A DNA stretch of 64,000 bases from Salvelinus alpinus (lineage: Eukaryota > Chordata > Actinopteri > Salmoniformes > Salmonidae). The first letter of the stretch is position 1. Each line of letters begins with the position of its first letter. Location: contig NC_092094.1 of NCBI RefSeq assembly GCF_045679555.1, positions 16,363,112 to 16,427,111 on the forward strand, in the 5' to 3' direction. The notes below the pieces were generated by a model. The model did not search any database. It had not been told where the DNA came from and saw nothing but the letters and a program-made list of their open reading frames with translations. Positions 2,668 through 58,243 of this stretch are shown piece after piece. A program made the translations under genes and the position numbers.

Positions 2668-2787
2668 AAGGGTCATTTCCATGTAAAAGGACCCATGAGC
2701 ACCAACATGTGAAGTTCATAGGAGCATATAAAATTGGGTGTCAAAAGAAAGCTAAGAGTCTATCTTTTTGAGAAAGTAAGGCATATA

Positions 2788-4432
<1,645 letters not shown>

Positions 4433-9720: not shown

Positions 9721-9919
9721 ATACAAGCAGAAGGATCCAGCCAAGTGTAACAGATGTAAATTGTACTCTCCTTGCGTTGTGTTTTGTCCAAATAAATCAC
9801 ATCAGCCAGTGGTCCCAGTTGAGCATCATTTATTTCTGTTGCTGTTGTTAAATAGCAAACAGCACGTTAGTTGTGCAGGGCTTAACGGTATTGATGGCTG
9901 TCGATGGCAAAAATCCCTT

Positions 9920-10269
9920 TGTCAGAGTCTATCTAGAAGATAGCGAAGGAGTCAGGCGCAGGACACAGGTAAGAGTAAAAGAACACTGTAATTTACTCAA
10001 TCCAAGACCTTAACAAAAATCCTGGAAAAAAACAAGGATAAAACAGGACATCGAACTCCAACACACGAAAGACAATCACGCACAAAACATAAAGGGAAAC
10101 CAGAGGGTTAGATAAGGAACACAATTATGAGATGGGAACCAGGTGTGTAAACAGACAAAACAAAAGGAAAAATGAAACATGGATCGGTGGCAGCTAGAAA
10201 GCCGGTGACGTCGACCGCCGAACGCCGCCCGAACAAGGAGAGGGAACAACTTCGGTGGAAGTCGTGACA
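9920..10269 (-). repeat. 3' LTR of the gypsy element
   Basis: 350 bp, nearly identical to the other LTR at 14547-14889 apart from small differences, for example a TCGACC-type insertion near 10210. The high similarity implies fairly recent insertion. It contains the word AATCACGCAC (10074-10083) and a TATA-like TTAGATAA on the plus strand about 25-30 bp above it. Confidence 0.95.
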
Positions 10270-10283
10270 GTACCCCCCCCTTG
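10270..10283 (-). promoter_or_regulatory. Polypurine tract
   Basis: On the minus strand AAGGGGGGGGTAC abuts the 3' LTR. This is the usual primer for plus-strand DNA synthesis of an LTR element, and its position fixes the element's orientation. Confidence 0.85.
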
Positions 10284-10339
10284 ACGCGCGGCTCCAGCAG
10301 CGCGCCGACACCGGCCACGGGGACGACCCGGGGGACGAC

Positions 10340-13300
10340 GATCCGGATGGAGTCAGTGAAATTCCTGGAGTAACGATGGGTCCAGGATGTCCCCCACCGG
10401 TACCCAGCATCTCTCCTCCGGGCCGTACCCCTCCCACTCCACGAGGTACTGAAGGCCTCTCGCCCGACGTCTTGAGTCCATAATGGCTCGCACTGTATAC
10501 GCCGGGGCCCCCTCGTTGTCCAGAGGTGGTGGAGGAACCTCCCGCACCTCAGACTGCTGGAGAGGACCAGCCACCACCGGCCTGAGGAGAGACACATGGA
10601 ACGAGGGGTTAATACGGTAATCAGGGGGGAGCTGTAACCTATAGCAAACCTCGTCCAGTCTCCTCAGGACTTTGAATGGCCCCACAAACCGCGGACCCAG
10701 CTCCGGCAGGGCAGGTGAAGGGGCAGGTTTCGGGTTGAGAGCCAGACCCGATCCCCCGGTGCATACACCGGGGCCTCACTGCGGTGGCGGTCGACACTCA
10801 TCTTCTGCCGCCTGATGGCCCTTTGTAGATGCACATGGGCAGCGTCCCATGTCTCCTCCGAGTGCCGAAACCATTCATCCACCGCAGGAGCCTCGATCTG
10901 GCTCTGATGCCATGGTGCCAGGACCGGCTGGTAACCTAGCACACACTGAAAAGGTGACAGGTTAGTGGAGGAGTGGCGGAGGGAGTTTTGAGCCATCTCT
11001 GCCCAGGGGAGAAACACCGCCCACTCCCCCGGCCGGTCCTGGCAATAGGACCGCAGAAACCTACCCACCTCCTGGTTGACTCTTTCCACCTGCCCGTTGC
11101 TCTCGGGGTGAAAACCTGAGGCAAGGCTGACCAAGACCCCCAGGCGCTCCATAAACGCCCTCCAGACTTTAGACGTGAATTGGGGACCCCGATCAGAAAC
11201 TATATCTATATAATAGGGCCTCCGCAGTCTGTAGGGCCGTAGGGAGACCGGGCAAAGGAAGGAGACGGCAGGACTTAGAAAGCCGATCCACAACGACTAG
11301 GATCGTGGTGTTACCCCGCGAGGGTGGAAGATCCGTCAGGAAATCCACCGAGAGGTGTGACCACGGTCGTTGTGGAATGGGAAGGGGTTGTAATTTCCCT
11401 CTGGGCAGGTGTCTAGGTGCCTTGCACTGTGCGCACACCGAACAGGAGGACACATAAACCCTCACGTCCTTAGCTAACGTGGGCCACCAGTACTTCCCAG
11501 CAAGACAGCGCACTGTACGACCGATGCCAGGATGACCAGAAGAGGTTGAAGTGTGAGCCCAACAGAACAAACGATCGCGGACATCCAACGAAACATACTT
11601 ACGCCCAACCGGACACTGGGTAGGAGTGGGCTCTGAACGTGACGCCCGTTCGATGTCCGCGTCCACCTCCCACACCACTGGTGCCACCAGGCAAGAAGCT
11701 GGAATAATGGGAGTGGGATCTGCGGACCACTCCTCTGTGTCATATATCTGGGACAGTGCGTCTGCCTTAACGTTCTGGGAACCTGGTCTGTAGGAGAGGG
11801 TGAAAGAAAAGCGGGTGAAAAACATGGCCCACCTTGCCTGGCGAGGGTTCAGTCTCCTTGCTGCTTGAATGTACTCCAGATTGCGGTGGTCAGTCCAAAT
11901 GAGAAAAGGGTGTCTGGCCCCCTCAAGCCAATGTCTCCACACTTTCAGAGCCTTGTCAACAGCCAACAACTCCCGGTCCCCCACATCATAGTTTCGCTCC
12001 GCCGGGCTGAGCTTCTTCGAAAAGAATGCACAGGGGCGGAGCTTTAGTGGCGTACCCGAGCGCTGAAACAGCACAGCCCCTATCCCTGCCTCGGACGCGT
12101 CCACCTCAACTATGAACGCTAAGGAGGGATCAGGATGAGCCAGCACGGGAGCCGAGGTAAACAGAGCCTTCAGGTGACCAAAAGCCCTGTCCGCCCCAGC
12201 TGACCACTGCAGTCGCACCGGTCCCCCCTTCAGCAGTGAGGTAATGGGAGCCGCTACCTGACCAAAACCCCGGATAAACCTCCGGTAGTAGTTGGCAAAC
12301 CCTAAAAACCGCTGCACCTCCTTAACCGTGATTGGAGTCGGCCAATTACGCACGGCTGAAATGCGGTCATTCTCCATCTCTACCCCTGACGCGGAAAAGC
12401 GGTACCCTAGGAAGGAGACGGACTGTTGACGTACAGGTCATGTTCCAACAGTCGACCAAGCACCCTGCGTACCAAGGACACATGCTCGGCGCGTGTAGCG
12501 GAGTATATTAGAATGTCATCTATATACACCACTACACCCTGCCCGTGCAGGTCCCTGAAAATCTCATCAACAAAGGATTGGAAGACTGATGGAGCATTCA
12601 TTGACCCGTACGGCATGGCGAGGTACTCATAATGCCCAGAAGTGGGGCTAAATGCTGTCTTCCACTCATCTCCCGCCCGGATACGCACCAGGTTGTAAGC
12701 GCTCCTGAGGTCCAATTTTGTGAAGAAGCGCGCCCCGTGTAATGACTCGGTCATACTGGCTATGAGCGGTAGAGGGTAACTGTATTTTACCGTGATCTTA
12801 TTTAAACTTTGATAATCAATACACGGGCGCAAACCTCCATCCTTCTTCTTCACAAAAAAGAAACTCGAGGAGACAGGTGAGATGGAAGGCCGAATGTATC
12901 TCTGTCCCAGAGATTCGGTGACATATGTCTCCATAGCCGCAGTCTCCTCCTGTGACAGAGGATACACGTGACTCCTCGGAAGTGCAGCTTCTACCAAGAG
13001 ATCTATCGCACAATCCCCCTGTCGATGGGGTGGTAATTGAGTCGCCTTCTTTTTACAGAAGGCGATTGCCAAATCGGCATATTCGGGAGGAATATGCATG
13101 GTGGAGACCTGGTTTGGATCTTCCACCATAGTGGCACCTAAGGAAACACCTACACACCTCCCTGAGCACTGACAGGACCATCCCCTGAGAGCCCTCTGTT
13201 GCCACGAAATAGTGGGATCATGCGAAGCCAACCAGGGAGTCCCCAACACAACAGGGAACGCAGGAGAGTCGATTAGGAAGAGACTAATTCGCTCCCTATG

Positions 13301-13560
13301 ACTCTCCTGCGTTGTCATAGTGAGCGGAGCTGTGACCTCCCTAATTAGCCCCGACCCCAAAGGACGACTGTCTAAGGCATGTACAGGGAAGGGAACATCA
13401 ACAGACACAATCGGGATCCCTAATCTCATAGCAAAGGAACGATCGATAAAAAGTTCCCAGCTGCGCCTGAATCTACTAGCGCCTTATGCTGGGAACGCGA
13501 GGAAAACTCGGGAAATTCTATCGACAACCACATGTGTGCAACAGGGAGCTCTGGGTGAGT
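10340..13560 (-). pseudogene. Gypsy pol: protease-RT-RNase H-integrase-chromodomain
   Basis: Multi-domain polyprotein that processes, reverse-transcribes and integrates the element. Read in minus direction: protease with LVDSGAAG near 13490; RT with KLDLRSAYN and the catalytic YIDDILIY near 12515; RNase H with [16 protein letters not shown] and [11 protein letters not shown]; integrase zinc-binding H-H-C-C region near 11500, first Asp in [10 protein letters not shown], then [10 protein letters not shown] and [10 protein letters not shown]; and a chromodomain with [17 protein letters not shown] near 10400. Frame breaks are visible after the protease site (extra Ts near 13450), near 12410, near 11200 and near 10670. 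The remaining stretches are long and well conserved. Confidence 0.93.
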
Positions 13561-13599
13561 GGTGTGCCTACTCACCTGGGATGACCCACCAGTACTCCG

Positions 13600-14528
13600 C
13601 CTGCTACCTCTACCTCCTGGGGAACCCCCCTAGCACCGACCAGCAGTGTGCCCTCTGCGGCCACAGTTGGTGCAGGGAATGGTCCCCCCTCCGGTCCCCC
13701 TCGTTGCAGCGCCTCCCAATTCCATAGGCGTTGGATCAGGAGCGCTGGGGGATGGAACTGACAGACCCCGATCAGGACGTCCGCGGGAGGCCAACAGGTT
13801 ATCCAACCGGATCGATAGGTCTACCAGCTGGTCCAGTGGAAGGGTGGTGTCCCTGCAGGCTAGCTCCCATTTACATTTACATTTACATTTAGCTCCCGAC
13901 GAACATCCTCTCGTAAGCTACACCTGTAGTGATCGATCAAGGCCCGCTCATTCCATCCCGCGCCGGCCGCCAGAGTTCTAAAATCCAGTGCAAAATCTTG
14001 AGCGCTCCTCATCCCCTGACGTAGATGAAATAGGCGTTCTCCCGCCGCTCTCCCCTCCGGGGGATGATCGAATACCGCCCGGAAACGGCGGGCGAACTCC
14101 TCATAATCATCCAACGTCTGACCTTCCCTACCCCAGATGGCGTTGGCCCATTCCAGGGCTTTACCGGTCAGACAGGAGATGAAGGCGCTCACTCTCTCGC
14201 GTCCCGAAGGGGCTGGCTGGACAGATGCCAGGTAGAGCTCCAGCTGGAGTATGAACCCCTGACACCCGGCAGCTGTGCCATCATACGCTCTCGGGAGCGA
14301 GAGCCAAATCCCACCGGATCCTGATGACGGAGAGGTGGACATCATGGTAGGTAGTGGGGAAACCTGAGGAGACGACACAGGGTTCACGGGAGAACCTCCT
14401 CTCTCCCATCGGTCCATGGTTTGCAGCACGCGATCCATGGCTGTACCCAGACTCTGCAGCATGGTCGTGTGCTGCTGAACGCGCTCCTCCATTTGAAGCG
14501 GAGGGCTGGCTGCACCTGCTGACTCCAT
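13600..14528 (-). pseudogene. Gypsy gag (sushi-type), frameshifted
   Basis: Starts at the ATG near 14528, 18 bp inside the 5' LTR, with a coiled N-terminus (MEERVQQHTTMLQSL) and a capsid-like region containing FILQLELYLA, FISCLTGKALEWA and FRTLAAGAGWNERAL, similar in layout to sushi-derived PEG10/RTL Gag. The frame is lost at 13861-13897 by a small insertion. Past it, the retroviral zinc knuckle C-X2-C-X4-H-X4-C ([14 protein letters not shown], about 13645-13685) is still readable in another frame. Confidence 0.9.
13861..13897. repeat. 21-bp (ATTTAC)n insertion with 8-bp duplication inside gag
   Basis: TAGCTCCC occurs at 13861-13868 and again at 13890-13897, enclosing 21 bp of ATTTAC repeats. 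The insert plus duplication adds 29 bp and shifts the gag frame. The insert resembles the (ATGTAA)n tail found on salmonid SINEs in this window, so it may be an extremely 5'-truncated retroposition. Confidence 0.8.
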
Positions 14529-14531
14529 TAT

Positions 14532-14546
14532 ATTGGTGCGTGATTC
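14532..14546 (-). promoter_or_regulatory. Self-complementary primer-binding site
   Basis: The minus strand directly inside the 5' LTR reads GAATCACGCACCAAT. There is no TGG start matching a tRNA 3' end. Instead AATCACGCAC is exactly complementary to GTGCGTGATT inside the same LTR (plus 14701-14710), which lies about 25-30 bp downstream of a TATA-like TTATTTAA (plus 14735-14742). The 10-bp match would sit at the 5' end of the RNA, as in Tf1-type self-priming. Confidence 0.75.
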
Positions 14547-14889
14547 TGTCAGAGTCTATCTAGAAGATAGCGAAGGAGTCAGGCGCAGGACACAGGTAAG
14601 AGTAAAAGAACACTGTTATTTACTCAATCCAAGACCTTAACAAAAATCCCGTATAAAAACAAGGACAAAACAGGACATCGAACTCCAACATACGAAAGAC
14701 AATCACGCACAAAACAGAAAGGGAAACCAGAGGGTTAAATAAGGAACAGAATTATGAGATGGGAACCAGGTGTGTAAACAGACAAAACAAAAGGAAAAAT
14801 GAAACATGGATCGGTGGCAGCTAGAATGCCGGTGACGCCGAACGCCGCCCGAACAAGGAGAGGGAACAACTTCGGTGGAAGTCGTGACA
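14547..14889 (-). repeat. 5' LTR of the gypsy element
   Basis: 343 bp, TG...CA, paired with 9920-10269. It carries the element's likely promoter: on the minus strand TTATTTAA (14742-14735) followed at RNA polymerase II spacing by the predicted RNA start near 14710. Confidence 0.95.
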
Positions 14890-15880
14890 CCCTTGCATCA
14901 CATTTTCATACTGGGCGAACAAAATACAAAAATACAATACAAAATATAACATGTGTAAATACCTGTTGTTAAATAGGAAACAGTACGTTAGTTGTGCAGG
15001 GCTTAACAGTATTGATGGCTGTCGATGGCAAAATCTGTAGCATGAAGACAACTGTGTTAGCAGTGGGCTTATGTGACCATTACGTCGGTGTATGCTAGCT
15101 AACACACATCCCTAACAGGTACCATATACCCACACATGTATAAATCAGTAATGTACAGCAAACTTGTACATATTGTAAAATAGAAAATAGAAAACAGTAT
15201 TCAGAACGTGACCTACCCCTTGCATCACATTTTCATACTGGGAAGACCTGACGTTCGCGATCTCCCCCTATCTGCAAGCGGGGCCAATCACAACACACCT
15301 TATTGTCATCAGAGTTGAACCAACCAATAAGAATGCTTGAACATTAAATACACCTTTCTTTAGAGGCAAGTGGAAACATAACCAACCCTGTTACACAAGC
15401 ACCAGCTGCCTAGCTGCTCTCTCACTAAGTCACGCCTATAGTGCATTGGGAAACGTGAACCTTTGAGCATAGCATGTAACAGACAACCTCCAACGCACAT
15501 CGGGCTACAATCGCTGCTCATCTATGGTCTGTTTTAGCTAAGAGTCAAGCAGTTTAATGAAGGGAACACATGAATAAACAGCTTCATAGATGTAGCAAGC
15601 AGACCCCTGCCCACTACTAGAGTACTGTAATCATTGGTATTAGCATGCCTCTGGGGTCCCACAGTTCCAAAGTTGAAAAGTTCATGGCTTACTAAAAAAA
15701 ATTACTTATGAAAAATAAACGGTAGCTATTTGGTTATGTAAGAAAACTGTATTTTTCTAGATGTTTAAGATCCCCGAAGCAACAGTCAGAGCTGCAGACA
15801 CCAACACATTTGAAATCAATAATCACCATTGGCATGTGGGGGAGTGAGGGCAACAGAGCTAGACCCTTAGCTAGTTTAGG
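14890..15880. other. Non-coding flank with short duplications
   Basis: No gene seen. A block around AGTTGTGCAGGGCTTAAC occurs at about 9868 and 14992, and CCCTTGCATCACATTTTCAT occurs at about 14890 and 15219. The LTR element therefore inserted into a locally duplicated sequence. Confidence 0.6.
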
Positions 15881-46563: not shown

Positions 46564-47072
46564 TAATCCTAAATCCCCCATGACAGGAATCACATGACTC
46601 ATGGCAACTGAGAGATTCATCTACTATTTATGAAATAAAGTGCCACAGACAAGTTCATTACAACACACATCCACACTAAAAAGGGGAACATAAATACCAT
46701 TCCCCATAAGATACAGTACTTTCAGGATACACCTGGCTATTGCTAAAATGCACTTTGATGGGATCAGAAGTTGCATGACTATTGATGAGACAGCAGGGTA
46801 TTAGTGCAAAACCTCATTGAGGTGAATCATTTGGAATTGTTTGAGCGCTCATAACAAAATAATTTTAAATTGTTCGGAGTTAAAACTTAAGCAGAGTACA
46901 CATTTAGTACTTTCATGTGTAAAGTGATATAGTCAAAATGTACTTACTGATGCAATGAATGACTCAATATTTGTTGATACTACACCTATACTAGCAACCC
47001 ATGAATGAAAAAATACAAAATCATACAAAAACAATTCATATTTTTAATTCAGAAATGACTAATGCTAGTCCC

Positions 47073-47235
47073 ATGTAGCTGTTGGTAGAGCGCGGCGCTT
47101 GCAGCGCCAGGGTTATGGGTTTGATTCCCACGGGGGACCAGTATGAAAAAAGTATTAAAATGTATGCACTTACTACTACTGTAAGTCGCTCTGGAAAAGA
47201 GCATCTGCTAAATGACAAAAATGTAAAAATGCTTA
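47073..47235 (+). mobile_element. HpaI-type tRNA-derived SINE
   Basis: A-box-like TAGCTGTTGGTAGAGCGCGG, B-box-like GGGTTTGATTCCCACGGG, then TGTAAGTCGCTCTGGAAAAG and an ATGTAAAAATG tail. The tRNA-like head is followed by the same tail module as the SmaI-type SINE at 8685-8996. Confidence 0.88.

Positions 47236-48727: not shown

Positions 48728-58243
<9,516 letters not shown>

What the first reader, a model, noticed from the sequence alone, without database searches (positions are those of the whole stretch)
14531..14746. Tf1/sushi-type self-priming signal in a salmonid gypsy element
The site next to the 5' LTR does not start with TGG. Its AATCACGCAC is an exact complement of GTGCGTGATT inside the LTR, placed 25-30 bp downstream of a TATA-like TTATTTAA, i.e. 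where the RNA would begin. Known knowledge: Tf1 primes reverse transcription by folding the first 11 nt of its RNA onto the primer site, and fish sushi elements were proposed to do the same. Here promoter spacing, complementarity and position all agree, giving a testable RNA start.
Basis: partly seen in the sequence, partly recalled or inferred. Interest (0 to 1): 0.75.

Follow-up and report, generated by a model that had tools for sequence, protein, structure and literature searches.

The report
Self-priming signal in fish retrotransposon
A broken fish jumping gene carries the marks of a known trick, in which the first letters of its own RNA fold back to start DNA copying instead of borrowing a host tRNA, and six distant relatives show the same layout with different letters.

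Summary
A Ty3/gypsy chromovirus (9920-14889, minus) has a 343-nt 5' LTR ending ...CTGACA, then G|AATCACGCAC (14536-14545). That 10-mer is the exact complement of GTGCGTGATT in the LTR (14701-14710); the first TGG begins only at nt 20 after the LTR. A match of 10 or more arose in 29 of 20,000 shuffled LTRs. TATTTAA starts 31 nt before the word.

The strongest new evidence is comparative. Of 7 contigs of the L001-L008 group that hold TATA region, LTR end and gag side, 6 show the same layout with other sequences: a 2-nt spacer, an 11-12-nt PBS, and its perfect complement 31-33 nt after the TATA T. The seventh (L005) has only a decayed match. A second helix joining the LTR end to the leader is supported in 5 of those 6, weakly in the fish.

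This is Tf1/sushi self-priming, already established for the group: a new member, not a new mechanism. The copy is broken, the RNA start is inferred, no other fish copies could be examined, and "salmonid" was not verified.

The parts
9920..14889 (-). LTR retrotransposon (chromovirus), broken copy, read right to left
   Evidence: LTR pair, domains, 5-bp target duplication
14547..14889 (-). 5' LTR, 343 nt, TGTCACG...CTGACA
9920..10269 (-). 3' LTR, 350 nt; 10 substitutions in 343 aligned sites against the 5' LTR plus one 7-nt gap
14735..14742 (-). TATA-like TTATTTAA; no other TATAAA, TATATA or TATTTA in the LTR
14701..14710 (-). proposed RNA 5' end and self-primer, GTGCGTGATT; inferred +1 at 14710 (T|G step)
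   Evidence: the RNA start itself is inferred
14536..14545 (-). primer-binding site AATCACGCAC, after a 1-nt spacer from the LTR end
14681..14690 (-). 5' arm of proposed second helix, TGTTGGAGTT
   Evidence: 105 of 2000 shuffles as good; 0 of 89 other leader 26-mers
14547..14556 (-). 3' arm of proposed second helix, GACTCTGACA (end of the LTR)
14575..14582 (-). possible arm of a third helix, CTGACTCC; weak
   Evidence: 61 of 1000 mononucleotide shuffles as good
14519..14526 (-). possible partner of the third helix, GGAGTCAG in the start of gag; weak
13860..14528 (-). gag frame from the ATG at 14528, ends early
12407..13483 (-). reverse transcriptase frame
11193..12437 (-). RNase H and integrase zinc-binding frame
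10664..11296 (-). part of integrase core, another frame
   Evidence: rve, below Pfam's cut-off
10353..10775 (-). integrase C-terminal SH3_Tf2-1 and chromodomain
10273..10282 (-). polypurine tract AAGGGGGGGG, before TAC and the 3' LTR
9915..9919 (+). target-site duplication CCCTT, left copy
14890..14894 (+). target-site duplication CCCTT, right copy

Best explanation
The site is the self-primer system of a Tf1/sushi-type chromovirus. TATA-directed transcription in the 5' LTR starts at or within a base or two of 14710, so the RNA begins GUGCGUGAUU. These first 10 nt pair with AAUCACGCAC just after the LTR; the end of the LTR pairs with leader nucleotides a little further in, giving a structure like the U5-IR stem of retroviruses; RNase H of the element's own enzyme cuts the 5' end off after about nt 10, and the freed 3' end primes minus-strand DNA into the LTR. 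Shown here: the sequences, their positions, the recurrence in six relatives. Inferred: the RNA start, the cut, the priming. This copy no longer works (its coding frames are broken), so it records the system of its family.
For: Exact 10-nt complement at the PBS position, 29 of 20,000 shuffles as good. Word begins 31 nt after the T of the only TATA-like motif in the LTR, at a T|G step. No TGG before nt 20. Six relatives (L001, L002, L004, L006, L007, L008) have a PBS of 11-12 nt after a 2-nt spacer, complementary to a word 31-33 nt after TATA. Counting the fish these are five different words, four of them unlike each other; L001 against L002/L006/L007 is a one-pair compensatory change. All 10 aligned pairs vary between elements; that every cell pairs is by construction, since complementarity was the search criterion, but the position at the LTR end and after TATA was not. 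Fold: fish priming duplex at mean pairing probability 0.88-0.89 at 7 of 10 RNA lengths (start at 14710); 0.94-0.96 in 6 of 6 relatives. Chromodomain and SH3_Tf2-1; Gag-PEG10 match. Literature: Tf1/sushi elements self-prime (PMC10085805, PMC6317226, PMC4600332).
Against: No RNA 5' end is known. No other copy of the fish family could be examined (14 unanswered calls to the genome search). At 3 of 10 RNA lengths (0.33, 0.63, 0.78) and at the shorter of two lengths (0.23; the longer is the 0.33 case) other folds compete. The fish duplex is 10 nt, not 11 as in Tf1, with a 1-nt instead of a 2-nt spacer. The fish second helix is weak against shuffles (105 of 2000), and the LTR end of the fish pairs as well with the leader of L001 (-11.7) as with its own (-11.8). 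The third helix of the Tf1 'pretzel' is not convincingly found. L005, in the same group, keeps only 7 of 11 matches. The 3' LTR TATA-like site is altered. The relatives are 48-52% identical in an RT segment, so they support the mechanism of the wider group more than of this family.
Confidence: 0.88

Rival explanations
1. The element is primed by a tRNA in the usual way, and the LTR match is chance.
For: tRNA priming is the rule in most LTR elements (recalled). This copy is degraded, so a PBS could have decayed.
Against: Mature tRNAs end in CCA (recalled), so a 3'-end primer needs TGG at the PBS; the first TGG begins at nt 20 after the LTR, in the gag start codon. A 10-nt match by chance is 29 of 20,000, and six relatives have the same layout.
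Confidence: 0.03
2. The complementarity is real and selected but serves another step, such as RNA packaging, dimerisation or control of gag translation (the ATG is 7 nt beyond the PBS).
For: The duplex lies just before the gag start; such long-range pairs can regulate translation or packaging (recalled).
Against: The place at the LTR-internal junction, where the first DNA must start, and the start of the word at the TATA-predicted RNA start are both required by self-priming and not by these roles.
Confidence: 0.05
3. Self-priming operates, but the RNA starts elsewhere and an internal LTR stretch is the primer.
For: In the more distant contigs L013 (9-nt match, TATA at 44 nt) and L011 (13-nt match at an unproven LTR, TATAT at 55 nt) the word is further from a TATA-like motif. 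In L001, L002, L004, L006 and L007 a near-copy of the PBS (9 of 11 or 12) lies between TATA and the word, better than 4940 or more of 5000 shuffles each; an RNA starting upstream of it could hide the primer in a local hairpin.
Against: In the fish and six relatives the distance is 31-33 nt in 7 of 7. The fish and L008 lack the PBS-like copy upstream of the word.
Confidence: 0.04

Closest known systems
Tf1 and Tf2 of fission yeast (founders of the Tf1/sushi group)
   Same: Chromodomain gypsy element; PBS complementary to the RNA 5' end; further leader pairing next to the PBS (PMC10085805 and PMC7175516, passages).
   Different: Tf1 uses 11 nt with a three-duplex structure; the fish copy shows 10 nt, a weak second helix and no convincing third one. 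No RNA data for the fish element.
Vertebrate sushi elements (sushi-ichi and kin; Butler et al. 2001, not held, cited in papers seen)
   Same: Fish chromoviruses of a group said to self-prime. Benachenhou's Sushi LTR model has TGTYANR...CNTNACA ends, a TATA-like stretch and a T-rich U3 (PMC3601003, passages and its Sushi section); the fish LTR fits the start, differs at one position of the end, and its U3 is 41% T. Sushi-ichi was reported in four teleosts (PMC2684134, passages).
   Different: No named sushi sequence was available for comparison, so the place of this family within the group is not set. Neither LTR contains AATAAA, which the Sushi model has.
Tcn1-clade chromoviruses of non-seed plants
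   Same: Reported as mostly lacking tRNA-type PBS and predicted to self-prime (PMC6317226, passages); possibly what L001-L008 are, but that was not tested.
   Different: L001-L008 are only 48-52% identical to the fish in an RT segment. One such element, SM-Tcn1, was reported to show no evidence of either priming type (PMC2864245, passages).

Membership tests
Tf1/sushi group of chromoviruses | Ty3/gypsy domain set with a chromodomain at the integrase C-terminus | tested here: met
   Chromo 1.8e-09, SH3_Tf2-1 6e-15, RVT_1, RNase H, Integrase_H2C2, Retrotrans_gag above cut-off; rve below it
Tf1/sushi group of chromoviruses | PBS complementary to an LTR word instead of a tRNA 3' end | tested here: met
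   no tRNA set was compared
Tf1/sushi group of chromoviruses | The LTR word is the very 5' end of the RNA | not testable with these tools
   only TATA spacing (31 nt) and a T|G step support it
Tf1/sushi group of chromoviruses | Extended leader pairing next to the PBS (U5-IR-like helix) | tested here: inconclusive
   fish 105 of 2000 shuffles as good, 0 of 89 leader segments; 5 of 6 relatives at 0-38 of 2000, L004 at 1837
Tf1/sushi group of chromoviruses | Third duplex of the 'pretzel' | tested here: inconclusive
   fish 8 nt, 61 of 1000 shuffles as good; L008 9 nt, 7 of 1000; the other 5 of 7 at 168 or more of 1000
Tf1/sushi group of chromoviruses | RT groups with named Tf1/sushi elements in a tree | not tested
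   no named reference sequences at hand; the tree holds only the fish and contig relatives and its deep branches are weak
Tf1/sushi group of chromoviruses | Gag related to sushi-derived mammalian genes | tested here: met
   only PDB hit at E up to 1 is PEG10, 1.7e-06; the tie of Peg10 to sushi-ichi is from the start of the abstract of PMC4340606
tRNA-primed LTR retrotransposons | PBS begins with TGG within a few nt of the LTR | tested here: not met
   first TGG begins at nt 20 after the LTR
Skipper-type chromoviruses | Polypyrimidine stretch in place of the PBS, no LTR complement (PMC5006619, passages) | tested here: not met
   site is GAATCACGCACCAA with a 10-nt LTR complement

The most novel reading that the evidence does not exclude
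Across widely separated Tf1/sushi-type elements the promoter and the primer are locked together: TATA sets +1 at 31-33 nt, the next 10-12 nt are the primer, and the LTR end folds onto the leader just behind it. If so, RNA 5' ends and primers of these elements could be read from genome sequence alone, and the PBS must co-evolve with the start site. I found no statement of this fixed spacing in the passages seen; one full-text search aimed at it listed two fission-yeast papers, seen only in passages and one section.
Probability: 0.5. Interest if true: 0.5.

Novelty: new member of a known kind. Interest (0 to 1): 0.38.

Why it matters
Self-priming was demonstrated in yeast Tf1 and proposed for vertebrate elements. 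A base-exact prediction of the RNA start in a fish element, backed by relatives with other words in the same place, makes the vertebrate claim easy to test with 5'-end data. If the TATA-to-primer distance is fixed, it gives a simple rule for finding more such elements.

Tried and rejected
Relatives of the RT in viral contigs, with the single protein and with an alignment: 9 and 248 pattern matches, none confirmed. The genome-contig scan gave 17 loci, all in records named as bacteria, by content eukaryotic gypsy elements. Of these 17, 8 hold an LTR-gag junction together with the TATA region, by my reading: L001, L002, L004, L005, L006, L007, L008, L013. L003, L009, L010, L012, L014, L015, L016 and L017 have no usable 5' LTR before the RT. 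L011 has a candidate junction downstream of its RT whose LTR start was not found. L005 and L013 were left out of the pair counts and (L005: match decayed to 7 of 11; L013: 9 nt, 44 nt from TATA).

The scan also returned 9-13-nt matches without TATA in several loci (0-1.6 hits expected per locus from five mononucleotide shuffles); I take most as chance. A slicing fault in that script let it pair sites within 60 nt of a contig start with places further on: the extra hits of L001 (position 2088), L002 (positions 37 and 19) and L003 are of that kind and were not used as PBS evidence. The L002 one led to the PBS-like copy upstream of the word.

A third leader helix was tested and not supported overall. 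A tree of RT segments did not resolve the place of the fish element; support for the L001-L008 group is 0.63. Copies in the host genome could not be searched: the genome search did not complete in any of 14 tries. One literature search, with zebrafish among its terms, held no paper. Papers 10.1007/s002390010154 and PMC1369541 are not held.

Full report
What is there. The element lies on the minus strand. Its LTRs are 14547-14889 (5', 343 nt) and 9920-10269 (3', 350 nt), 95.1% identical with gaps counted and differing at 10 of 343 aligned sites plus one 7-nt gap (K2P 0.030). A 5-bp duplication CCCTT flanks it. Pfam finds Retrotrans_gag, RVT_1, RNase H, Integrase_H2C2, SH3_Tf2-1 and Chromo above cut-off in successive stretches. 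These lie in different frames with stops, so this copy is broken. The only solved structure that Gag matches at E up to 1 is PEG10; Ty3 is among the nearest solved RTs.

The observation. Reading the minus strand, the LTR ends ...GACTCTGACA and is followed by G, then AATCACGCAC, then CAATATA and the gag ATG. AATCACGCAC (14536-14545) is the exact complement of GTGCGTGATT (14701-14710), which begins 31 nt after the T of TATTTAA. The 3' LTR holds the same word, but its TATA-like site reads TTATCTAA. A match of 10 or more to the 13 nt after the LTR came up in 29 of 20,000 dinucleotide shuffles of the LTR, and in 205 of 126,430 13-mers from the rest of the window. The first TGG begins at nt 20 after the LTR, so a tRNA 3' end cannot pair there in the usual way.

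Relatives. One scan of prokaryote genome records with the RT returned 17 loci, evidently eukaryotic contaminants; two scans of viral contigs confirmed none. A mechanical scan for a PBS 0-3 nt after ACA with a complement 60-450 nt upstream found, in L001, L002, L004, L006, L007 and L008, an 11-12-nt word whose PBS follows the LTR end after a 2-nt spacer and which begins 31-33 nt after the T of TATAAA or TATATA. In the stretch examined (up to 300 nt upstream of the word, but only 37 nt in L002, 83 in L006, 127 in L004 and 205 in L008) no other TATAAA, TATATA or TATTTA was seen, apart from an overlapping one in L004 and two in the fish that lie outside the LTR. L005 of the same group has the junction but only a 7-of-11 match; L013, more distant, has 9 nt at 44 nt from TATA; L011 has a 13-nt match at an unproven LTR, 55 nt from TATAT. 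The fish and six relatives show five different words; those of L002, L006 and L007 are the same and that of L001 differs by one pair, so four are independent in look.

Covariation. With words and PBS aligned at the primer 3' end, all 10 pairs have two or three pair types among seven elements, and 70 of 70 cells are Watson-Crick. The fish word pairs at 1-3 of 10 positions with the PBS of the others. Complementarity was the search criterion, so the perfect pairing is by construction; what is not by construction is that such a word is found in 6 of 7 members of the group, each at the LTR end and each 31-33 nt from TATA.

Folding. The leader from the inferred RNA start pairs word and PBS with mean probability 0.94-0.96 in 6 of 6 relatives. 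In the fish, with the RNA starting at 14710, it is 0.88-0.89 at 7 of 10 RNA lengths and 0.33, 0.63 and 0.78 at the other three; at one further length, it is 0.23, where the first nucleotides pair with GUGC in gag instead. Five other start points were also tried, with the same pattern. Just behind the word, the leader can also pair with the LTR end: fish UGUUGGAGUU with GACUCUGACA. Shuffles as good or better, of 2000: fish 105, L001 0, L002 7, L006 18, L007 38, L008 38, L004 1837; other leader segments as good: 0 in six elements and 53 of 76 in L004. The own LTR end is the best partner for the leader in 5 of 7 elements (not in L004, and by 0.2 kcal/mol not in L006). This resembles the U5-IR-like helix of Tf1 (title of Lin and Levin 1998 in the reference list of PMC4600332; the three-duplex structure as described in PMC10085805). 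A third helix was not supported overall.

Something unexplained. In L001, L002, L004, L006 and L007 a near-copy of the PBS (9 of 11 or 12 letters) lies between TATA and the word, matched by 13 to 60 of 5000 shuffles; L005 has a similar stretch by eye. It follows the word, since L004 has another word and another copy. The fish and L008 lack it. It could be a by-product of reverse transcription, a promoter feature, or a hairpin arm in longer RNAs.

How it most likely works. Transcription starts about 31 nt after the TATA-like box, the first 10 nt fold back on the PBS, RNase H frees the primer, and minus-strand synthesis enters the LTR. In Tf1 the first 11 bases do this, with a cut between bases 11 and 12 (PMC7175516, passage). 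The word starts at a pyrimidine-purine step in the fish and in five of six relatives; in L004 such a step is one base inside, which would make its primer 11 nt. The start, the cut and the priming are inferred.

Known or new. Papers seen in passages state that self-priming is common to Tf1/sushi elements, in fungi and vertebrates, and predicted in plant Tcn1 elements (PMC10085805, PMC6317226, PMC4600332). Butler et al. 2001, the vertebrate paper, is not held. So this is a new member of a known kind. Two searches with salmon among the terms showed no such element in their listings (20 of 23 and 3 of 3 papers listed), and a search for self-primer with TATA and transcription start listed two fission-yeast papers. 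The library lacks most subscription journals, so this is weak evidence of absence. That the host is a salmonid was not tested; Tc1-like termini in the window fit what I recall of salmonid Tc1 elements.

Noticed in passing
L001, L002, L004, L006, L007, between TATA and the primer word (for example L006 65-94): A near-copy of the PBS lies upstream of the predicted RNA start, making an inverted repeat across it; it differs along with the word, and is absent in the fish element and L008. Unexplained.
   Followed up: partly
2786-4425, 51398-52988, 53981-55580: Three Tc1-like transposon copies, about 89-91% alike, with AGTTGAAGTCGGA...TACATACAC-type termini, similar to what I recall of salmonid Tc1 elements.
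   Followed up: partly
13861-13897: In gag, a 21-nt ATTTAC-type repeat lies between two copies of TAGCTCCC (8 bp), next to the end of the first gag frame; it looks like a short insertion with an 8-bp target duplication.
   Followed up: no
9842-9912 and 14963-15033; 14891-14915 and 15218-15242: The target locus holds local repeats (71 nt at 96%, one copy on each side of the element; an exact 25-nt repeat on its right side).
   Followed up: partly
L001-L017: Records named as bacterial genomes (seven of the 17 loci labelled Trichormus) contain contigs that by content are eukaryotic gypsy retrotransposons, that is, probably contamination.
   Followed up: partly
L006 and L008, both ends: Identical 55-nt ends: probably assembler circles in which the two LTRs have collapsed into one.
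   Followed up: yes
47068-47139: One tRNA-Ala-like gene (anticodon TGC) called by ARAGORN with the bacterial setting; may be a SINE or a true tRNA.
   Followed up: no
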